Below are positions 58,101 to 58,755 of a stretch of DNA of 64,000 bases, piece by piece. This DNA is from an uncultured Erythrobacter sp. GTDB taxonomy: Bacteria; Pseudomonadota; Alphaproteobacteria; Sphingomonadales; Sphingomonadaceae. Numbering within the stretch: position 1 is the first letter of the stretch; each line of letters begins with the position of its first letter. The DNA lies in NCBI GenBank assembly GCA_947488155.1, contig CANKYK010000001.1:62001-126000 (forward strand), written 5' to 3'. The notes beneath the pieces were generated by a model that worked only from the letters and a program-made list of their open reading frames with translations, was not told where the DNA came from and ran no database searches. The translations under genes were made by a program, and so were the position numbers.

Positions 58101-58755
58101 GGGTGATGAGATGAGGAAGAAGGTCAGGCAAAGTACCTTGTACCTCATCATCCCGGCCTCCGAGCCGGGATCCCACTTTCTCTGCTTTCTGTCCGGAAAA
58201 GCAGCTGGCCCCCGGATCAAGTTCGGGGTGACGAAAGGGGATAATGTTGCTCATCACCTTTATCGTAAATTCGCTCGCCAAATTGCGCGGCGGCAGCAGG
58301 ATCAGTTGCACATCCTCAGAATGCTCAGCCAGCATCGCAAGGTCGATTTCGCACACGCCCTTGTCTTGCCACTCACCGCTGAGCGTCCGCATCCGCCCGG
58401 CGCTGATCAAGCGGCACAAACGCCCGTAAGCCGCCCGATTTTTCGGATATGCCAGAAGCGCAAGACCCTCGACCGTTTCGATGCGCGTGCCGATCACGGG
58501 CCGTAATTTGAGCGTCTTCGCCTCACTATGCACCCGCACCACTCCAGCGAAAGAGTTCACATCCGCAATCCCGATCGCATCATAGCCGAGCGTGCGGGCC
58601 GCCATGGTGAGGTCCACCGCATCGGAAGCACCGCGCAGAAAGCTGAAGCAGCTGACCAATCCGAGTTCGACGAATTCGGCGCGATCTGGCGCACTGATCA
58701 GATCGGGATCGAACTCAATTGTCCGTTTGTCTGGGGTGAGAGGTGCGTCGGGCAT
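55162..58755 (-). CDS. dnaE2: Error-prone DNA polymerase DnaE2 (ImuC)
   Basis: Translesion C-family polymerase of the ImuA/ImuB/ImuC mutasome; 1197 residues. The PHP domain is at the N-terminus ([22 protein letters not shown]). The polymerase core has [53 protein letters not shown] and [16 protein letters not shown], and an OB domain ([26 protein letters not shown]) lies near the C-terminus. Residues about 168-210 are a palindromic-repeat insertion absent from typical homologues. It is third in the operon behind a LexA box, with its start overlapping the last bases of the UdgX gene region (one-base gap). Confidence 0.95.
   Translation of the reverse strand: [1197 protein letters not shown]
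58126..58254 (-). repeat. Palindromic repeat inserted in frame within dnaE2
   Basis: TCATCCCGGCCTCCGAGCCGGGATCC (58147-58172) forms one hairpin (CCCGGC/GCCGGG) and CCCCCGGATCAAGTTCGGGG (58209-58228) a second one. The outer part matches repeat type 2 after purL (GGATCAAGTyCGsGGTGACG). Read on the coding strand it gives [15 protein letters not shown] and SRLGGRDDE, with no stop and a length that keeps the frame, between SEFTIKV and [14 protein letters not shown] of the PHP domain. Confidence 0.85.

What the first reader, a model, noticed from the sequence alone, without database searches (positions are those of the whole stretch)
58126..58254. Palindromic repeat element inserted in frame inside dnaE2 (imuC)
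Residues about 168-210 of DnaE2 are encoded by a GC-rich double-hairpin repeat that also occurs between genes (type 2 unit after purL). It keeps the frame and has no stop, adding about 43 residues to the PHP domain of an otherwise complete 1197-residue polymerase. Rickettsial palindromic elements behave this way; such protein-internal repeats are rarely noted in sphingomonads. It shows the element can enter coding DNA, and that this site of ImuC tolerates an extra loop.
Basis: partly seen in the sequence, partly recalled or inferred. Interest (0 to 1): 0.78.

Follow-up and report, generated by a model that had tools for sequence, protein, structure and literature searches.

The report
Palindromic repeats colonising DNA polymerase loops
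A short hairpin-forming DNA repeat sits in frame inside the gene for an error-prone DNA polymerase, and in related bacteria many different repeats of this kind have settled at the same spot, where the protein seems able to absorb extra residues.

Summary
Window 58146-58233 (88 bp, not 129) is a head-to-head dimer of CGTC-type REP palindromes, read in frame as DnaE2 residues 175-203; the loop is 21 residues longer than in the sister (not 43). The kind is in print: Di Nocera et al. 2013 (PMC3733652) described CGTC REPs inside genes and named DnaE2. What I did not find in print is the pattern around it. The same loop carries a recognisable repeat in 23 of 45 genus genomes examined: CGTC dimers in both orientations, and unrelated palindromes. 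A second loop (residues about 875-889) behaves alike. The sister (96% core identity) lacks the element at site 1 but has, at site 2, a palindrome found at 31-34 places in either genome. Site 1 is a confidently predicted beta-hairpin tip; site 2 is one only in a poor model. B and C inserts are under relaxed constraint (omega 0.5-0.6; core 0.03-0.05). Neighbouring UdgX and radical-SAM genes lack such inserts; glyS and DnaE1 have some. Most likely repeats land widely and persist where the fold tolerates them. For the window copy, insertion and swapping of loop alleles cannot be told apart.

The parts
58146..58233 (-). CGTC-type REP head-to-head heterodimer, 88 bp, encodes DnaE2 residues 175-203 ([29 protein letters not shown])
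   Evidence: Sequence, folds, genus copies, likeness to the CGTC description in PMC3733652
58208..58233 (-). right arm, beginning with the CGTC tag
   Evidence: 5 places in own genome at up to 3 mismatches, itself included, one after purL; weak fold alone (z -1.1)
58146..58171 (-). left arm, 9-bp stem and 4-nt loop, tag CATC
   Evidence: Fold z -3.6, 0 of 200 shuffles as good
58182..58204 (-). small stem in the spacer between the arms
   Evidence: DNA fold of the coding strand
55162..58755 (-). dnaE2 (imuC), error-prone DNA polymerase, 1197 aa
   Evidence: ORF; Pfam PHP, DNA_pol3_alpha, DNA_pol3_finger, HHH_6, tRNA_anti-codon OB fold
58135..58269 (-). site 1: beta-hairpin (strands 163-168 and 202-207) whose disordered tip holds the element
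   Evidence: AlphaFold2 model of residues 1-410, mean pLDDT 87.9; residues about 171-200 average 50-64
56089..56133 (-). site 2: loop at residues about 875-889, without a palindrome in the window, filled in some relatives
   Evidence: loop between strands 872-875 and 895-898 in a low-confidence full-length model
21090..21190 (.). intergenic palindromic repeats after purL: a CTGAA-stem CGTC arm and one arm of the dnaE2 element's type

Best explanation
The 88-bp insert is a coding CGTC-type REP dimer, one of several kinds of palindromic repeats that enter, are exchanged at and decay in two loops of DnaE2 in Erythrobacter relatives. Shown: the loops hold different palindromes in related genomes; none of the genus dnaE2 matches shows an internal stop; site 1 is a predicted beta-hairpin tip; the core of the gene stays under purifying selection. 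Inferred: repeats arrive at many genomic positions by a mechanism not seen here. Copies persist in dnaE2 when length and frame fit and the extra peptide hangs off the surface; it then drifts under relaxed constraint until lost or replaced. GC-rich palindromes are suited to this, being open in most frames (4 of 6 for the window element). No benefit to the cell needs to be assumed.
For: Site 1: of 211 distinct DnaE2 sequences, 99 carry a recognised repeat peptide, 21 a longer unclassified loop, 66 a short loop, 25 no loop. Genus sample: 23 of 45, in seven states. The same CGTC dimer lies in both orientations relative to the gene. The tree, built without the loop columns, needs at least 25 changes of state at site 1. 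The sister L009 (96% core identity) has no element at site 1 but at site 2 a palindrome found at 31 places in the window's genome and 34 in its own (both-strand rows merged by eye). That family appears at site 2 in two, probably three, reading frames: L009 frame 0, P0064 frame 1, P0097 probably frame 2 (the last two seen as protein only). Two further insert families are multi-copy. No internal stop in the dnaE2 matches of 58 genomes. Insert at the tip of a confident hairpin. Omega 0.61 (C) and 0.50 (B) in inserts against 0.12-0.17 in codons 90-150 and 212-300 and 0.03-0.05 in codons 600-860. Synonymous divergence in inserts lower than nearly everywhere else in the gene. UdgX and radical SAM: no repeat-like insert in 39 rows each.
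Against: For the window copy, identity to L009 stays low for about 110 nt beyond the element (34/60 and 44/60 in the next two blocks), and the next relative L091 has a loop that looks like a decayed element, so the window lineage may have received or kept a whole loop allele. Families were assigned by peptide motifs, with miscalls seen at site 2. DnaE2 is not unique: glyS beta and a few other genes carry such inserts, and DnaE1 has one in 6 genomes. The non-synonymous divergence of the inserts is not extreme for the gene (178 of 1076 and 49 of 1061 windows as high). Low synonymous divergence could also come from gene conversion with other copies or from base composition. A generic hairpin scan showed little contrast between dnaE2 and its flanks. 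No expression data.
Confidence: 0.72

Rival explanations
1. Loop alleles, with or without a repeat, are mostly shuffled between species by homologous recombination; new insertions are rare.
For: Two loop backbones (PAWASNV and VPSNV) are mixed on the tree by eye; the low-identity stretch between window and L009 reaches about 110 nt beyond the element; L015 and L215, close in the core, differ in the insert at both sites.
Against: Among class B and C rows the low synonymous divergence is confined to the insert, with normal values in codons 151-168 and 212-300, shorter than the tracts I would expect from recombination (general knowledge). In the three other pairs aligned (L015/L215, L016/L024, L016/L072) identity returns within a block after the insert. 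Several families, both orientations and different frames need several insertions anyway.
Confidence: 0.25
2. The two loops are true insertion hot spots at the DNA level, e.g. by microhomology: the flank AACGTCATCCC resembles a CGTC repeat end.
For: Repeats of different families lie within a few codons of one another; SNVIPF codons often read GTCATCCC. Not counted or tested.
Against: Families without a CGTC end (F, D) use the same sites, and site 2 has no such motif in the sequences printed; tolerance of loops explains both sites without a DNA target.
Confidence: 0.15
3. The inserts are selected because they tune the mutagenic polymerase, as Di Nocera et al. speculated for REP-decorated repair proteins.
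For: Recurrence in DnaE2: 9 of 146 listed copies other than the window's, 0.15 expected; the published excess in replication and repair genes.
Against: Four of those nine hits include dnaE2 flank bases of the query, leaving five clean ones, and the copies are not independent; relaxed constraint on the inserts; many unrelated peptides at the same site; no structure predicted for the insert.
Confidence: 0.08
4. The residues are an ancient, conserved part of DnaE2 and not an insert.
For: A longer loop is common in Erythrobacter relatives.
Against: Rhodobacteraceae-like sequences lack the loop, the sister lacks the element, and the bases match genomic repeats.
Confidence: 0.01

Closest known systems
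CGTC-tagged REPs (Di Nocera, De Gregorio, Rocco 2013, PMC3733652; abstract, sections 6, 14 and 15, part 1 of 2 of the Discussion and some passages read; figures and supplements not seen)
   Same: CGTC tag, 8-9 bp stems with small loops, head-to-head heterodimers, mostly intergenic, some in genes; DnaE2 named among decorated proteins.
   Different: One tag is CATC and the right arm is imperfect. The paper says REPs in genes of one functional category sit at different sites, except recB of two Xanthomonas; here many genomes share one DnaE2 site, used by several families, and there is a second site.
Rickettsia palindromic elements (Ogata et al. 2000, 2002; not held, known through passages of PMC10969869 and from PMC3733652)
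   Same: Palindromes inserted in frame inside unrelated genes; RPE-6 and RPE-4 are CGTC repeats according to PMC3733652.
   Different: Other genus; here one protein is hit again and again by different families.
Coding MITEs such as those of Coxiella burnetii (PMC5896051; search listing with start of abstract only)
   Same: Short inverted-repeat elements with implications for protein evolution, by its title.
   Different: No terminal inverted repeats of a known transposase and no target duplication were established here.

Membership tests
CGTC-tagged REP | terminal CGTC (or TGTC, CCTC) tag | tested here: inconclusive
   CGTC at the right end; the left end reads CATC
CGTC-tagged REP | 8-9 bp stem, 4-5 nt loop, complementary AT at the stem base | tested here: inconclusive
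   Left arm: 9 bp, loop 4, AT present; right arm: 5 bp in the RNA fold, longer in the DNA fold of the other strand
CGTC-tagged REP | head-to-head dimers predominate | tested here: met
   Two arms with tags outward and a spacer between them
CGTC-tagged REP | dispersed multi-copy family | tested here: met
   47 of 61 genus genomes match; 147 distinct places among 150 listed rows, listing cut off; right arm at 5 places in own genome
CGTC-tagged REP | no dedicated transposase | not tested
   Taken from the paper's abstract only
Rickettsia palindromic element | in-frame insert in a protein gene, absent in orthologues | tested here: met
Rickettsia palindromic element | sequence membership of one of the RPE families | not tested
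   No RPE sequences were compared
MITE | terminal inverted repeats of an autonomous transposon and target-site duplication | not tested
   Flanks of 22 copies of the sister's palindrome were printed but no duplication test was made

The most novel reading that the evidence does not exclude
Two loop tips of DnaE2 act as standing docking sites for palindromic DNA across Erythrobacter and its relatives, continually refilled by different repeats, and now and then such an insert is kept as new protein: in DnaE1, the replicative polymerase, a HAELVEAL..FDKLRTNG repeat of the window's genome aligns without gaps with a segment of five other genomes, still repeat-like in one (L213) and eroded in four. 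Palindromic repeats would then be a steady source of new polymerase segments, perhaps with effects on mutagenesis.
Probability: 0.2. Interest if true: 0.8.

Novelty: new variant of a known kind. Interest (0 to 1): 0.55.

Why it matters
Coding palindromes have been known since the Rickettsia work, but as scattered cases. Here one protein gives a natural series: the same two loops filled, emptied and refilled by different repeats in related species, with orthologues lacking an element for comparison. That makes it possible to test, in harmless marine bacteria, whether selfish repeats in genes are merely tolerated, how they arrive, and whether they become new protein. The protein being the mutagenic polymerase also makes the published guess that repeats tune mutation directly testable.

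Tried and rejected
Generic hairpin scan: too strict for decayed repeats, little contrast (28 in dnaE2, 42 in flanks, 0.07 against 0.05 per kb), dropped as a control; this result does not support my reading. Searching flanks of the loci for insert copies: 7 of 93 inserts had hits, replaced by whole-genome searches. Clustering inserts by BLAST: shared dnaE2 flanks joined 44 of 47, replaced by motif classes. First site-2 motif count held false calls and was redone, where L019 is still filed as F instead of J and L047, L056, L214 are doubtful; one search has the like miscalls. Covariation in stems: mostly one-sided changes, so no support for selection on the hairpin. Full-length structure: mean pLDDT 49, used only as a hint for site 2. 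PDB fold search only confirmed the Pol III alpha/PHP fold. The Y-polymerase loci were fetched but not aligned as a control. Ancient conserved loop: rejected. Literature searches: in a library without most subscription journals; Ogata 2002 was not held.

Full report
What is there. dnaE2 occupies 55162-58755 on the minus strand and has the expected domains. Inside it, 58146-58233 is an 88-bp head-to-head pair of palindromes with the tags CATC and CGTC at its outer ends. It encodes residues 175-203. The left arm is a 9-bp stem with a 4-nt loop (z -3.6, 0 of 200 shuffles as good); the right arm alone is unremarkable (z -1.1, 29 of 200), and the whole as RNA gives z -1.9 (10 of 200). As single-stranded DNA the two strands give z -2.5 and -2.9. 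Four of its six frames are open.

Copies. In the window's genome the whole element is found once, with two partial matches; its right arm is at 5 places, itself included, at up to 3 mismatches, 0 for the reversed pattern. One is after purL (21154-21190), beside an arm of a different subfamily. In the genus, 47 of 61 genomes have a match at E up to 0.001 (listing cut off, at most 14 candidates scored per genome). Of the 150 listed rows, 147 are distinct places in 42 genomes and 10 lie in dnaE2. Leaving out the window's own, 9 of 146 against 0.15 expected; but the query held about 20 bases of dnaE2 on either side, the four same-orientation hits use them, and the copies are not independent. The five others lie in the opposite orientation and do not need those bases. 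Three places lie in or near glyS, for which only 12 of the intervals were tried.

The same site in relatives. I collected 80 titled loci (the best 80 of 593 related stretches), the best 120 of 7998 protein hits and genus genomes (58 of 61 with a match, none with an internal stop). Ranking by similarity to the window may favour sequences with like inserts, so the genus sample is the fairer one. Among 211 distinct sequences (duplicates and proteins under 1050 aa dropped), site 1 (residues 150-222) has: 25 no loop (Rhodobacteraceae-like and some others), 66 a short loop, 99 a recognised repeat peptide, 21 a longer unclassified loop. A (the window's) and B are the same CGTC heterodimer in the two orientations; C is a short CGTC dimer; E has CGTC tags with another stem; D and F are unrelated palindromes. 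The motif classes are my own, set on peptides. I looked at the DNA of A to F, J, L and M; the others rest on peptides, except that I is a hairpin.

A second site. Residues about 862-905 behave alike: of 211 sequences 171 are short and 40 long, with 35 assigned to six motif classes (some miscalled) and 5 not. Two of those five, P0064 and P0097, look like the L palindrome in other reading frames, P0064 clearly and P0097 moderately (proteins only). L009, the window's sister (96% core identity), carries that L palindrome at site 2. One search lists it in the sister's genome (68 matches) and in the window's own (61 matches), 34 and 31 places once both-strand rows are merged by eye; of two other genomes searched, one had 2 matches and one none. 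Of 60 such copies outside dnaE2 that I fetched (31 from the window's genome and 29 of the sister's 33), 11 have an open frame with at least 60 codons on both sides. Pfam, run on one frame of 10 of these 11, puts the palindrome within a domain-bearing protein for an HI0933-like flavoprotein (both genomes) and a sodium/sulfate symporter, ahead of the domain in chorismate synthase and a histidine phosphatase (both genomes), and finds no family for three. So coding copies exist elsewhere but are a minority.

History. A FastTree of 117 DnaE2 rows without the loop columns (6 identical rows and a partial one dropped) needs at least 25 changes of state at site 1 (30 with the first classes) and 15 at site 2 (11 with the first classes), the latter with classification errors. 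Site 1 scored as with or without a recognised element needs 14. These are changes, not insertions: gain, loss and swapping are not told apart. For the window copy, identity to L009 falls in the loop and stays low for about 110 nt beyond it, whereas in the three other pairs aligned it returns within a block. The window's loop backbone is of the other type than L009's, and L091 has a loop that looks like a decayed element. So the window copy may be a swapped or inherited allele.

How it evolves. In eight class C and seven class B rows the inserts have dN/dS 0.61 and 0.50. Codons 90-150 and 212-300 have 0.12-0.17, the flanking strand 151-168 about 0.29, the C-terminal tail 0.23-0.33, the core 600-860 0.03-0.05. 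Synonymous differences are lower in the insert than in all 1076 other windows for C, and 5 of 1061 windows are as low for B; non-synonymous differences are not extreme (178 of 1076 and 49 of 1061 windows as high; overlapping windows). My reading: the inserts are younger in place than the species splits, or are homogenised with other copies, and their peptide is under relaxed constraint. Stems vary mostly on one side, with two two-sided changes, both in L109, so the hairpin is not visibly maintained.

Structure. A model of residues 1-410 on 66 sequences has mean pLDDT 87.9 and pTM 0.80. Strands 163-168 and 202-207 form a confident hairpin and the insert is its disordered tip. Its best PDB matches are Pol III alpha chains. 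Site 2 lies between two short strands in a full-length model that is poor overall.

Controls. From 55 loci given, UdgX and radical SAM yielded 39 distinct rows each, the window's included, without a repeat-like insert; three UdgX rows have 15-16 extra residues of other kinds. DnaE1 has a large insert in 1 of 30 rows, the window's own. Five further genomes, picked by match length, have it too; there the segment aligns without gaps, still repeat-like in L213 and eroded in four. GlyS beta has repeat peptides in 4 of 30 rows at two sites, and very diverse inserts at a third; CGTC copies lie in two glyS loci. DnaE2 is therefore extreme among the five proteins compared, not unique; no genome-wide census was made. 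A generic hairpin scan showed little contrast between dnaE2 and its flanks.

What is known. PMC3733652 describes CGTC REPs, their dimers, coding copies, an excess in replication and repair genes, and DnaE2 by name; it speculates about mutators. The window element is of that kind, with one departing tag and one weak arm. It works like a Rickettsia palindromic element; membership in an RPE family was not tested. Repeated filling of one loop by several families I did not find in print in the seven searches named under tried and rejected.

Verdict. Element real; coordinates, size and rarity corrected; kind already known; recurrent two-site colonisation of DnaE2 new as far as searched. Mechanism of arrival unknown, tolerance the best explanation of persistence, function of the insert neither shown nor needed.

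Noticed in passing
L168 (own genome C2:1056117-1059293): The replicative DnaE1 of the window's genome carries a 37-residue segment (residues 311-347) from another palindromic repeat (HAELVEAL..FDKLRTNG); five other genomes have it too (L209-L213), repeat-like in L213 and eroded in four; the 29 other rows lack it.
   Followed up: partly
L229-L258 (glyS beta loci): Glycyl-tRNA synthetase beta has repeat peptides at two sites (L234, L246, L253, L240) and, near residue 563, inserts of about 20-70 residues in 15 of 30 rows that resemble no repeat I know and differ widely.
   Followed up: no
window 20940-21320: A dense intergenic array of several palindromic repeat families after purL.
   Followed up: partly
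own genome C1:126174-126509, just past the window end: A Y-family polymerase match (549-aa frame), probably ImuB, lies about 5 kb upstream of dnaE2, with UdgX, a radical-SAM gene and others between; the name ImuB is inferred.
   Followed up: no
window 32699-32878: About a dozen tandem 15-bp units.
   Followed up: no
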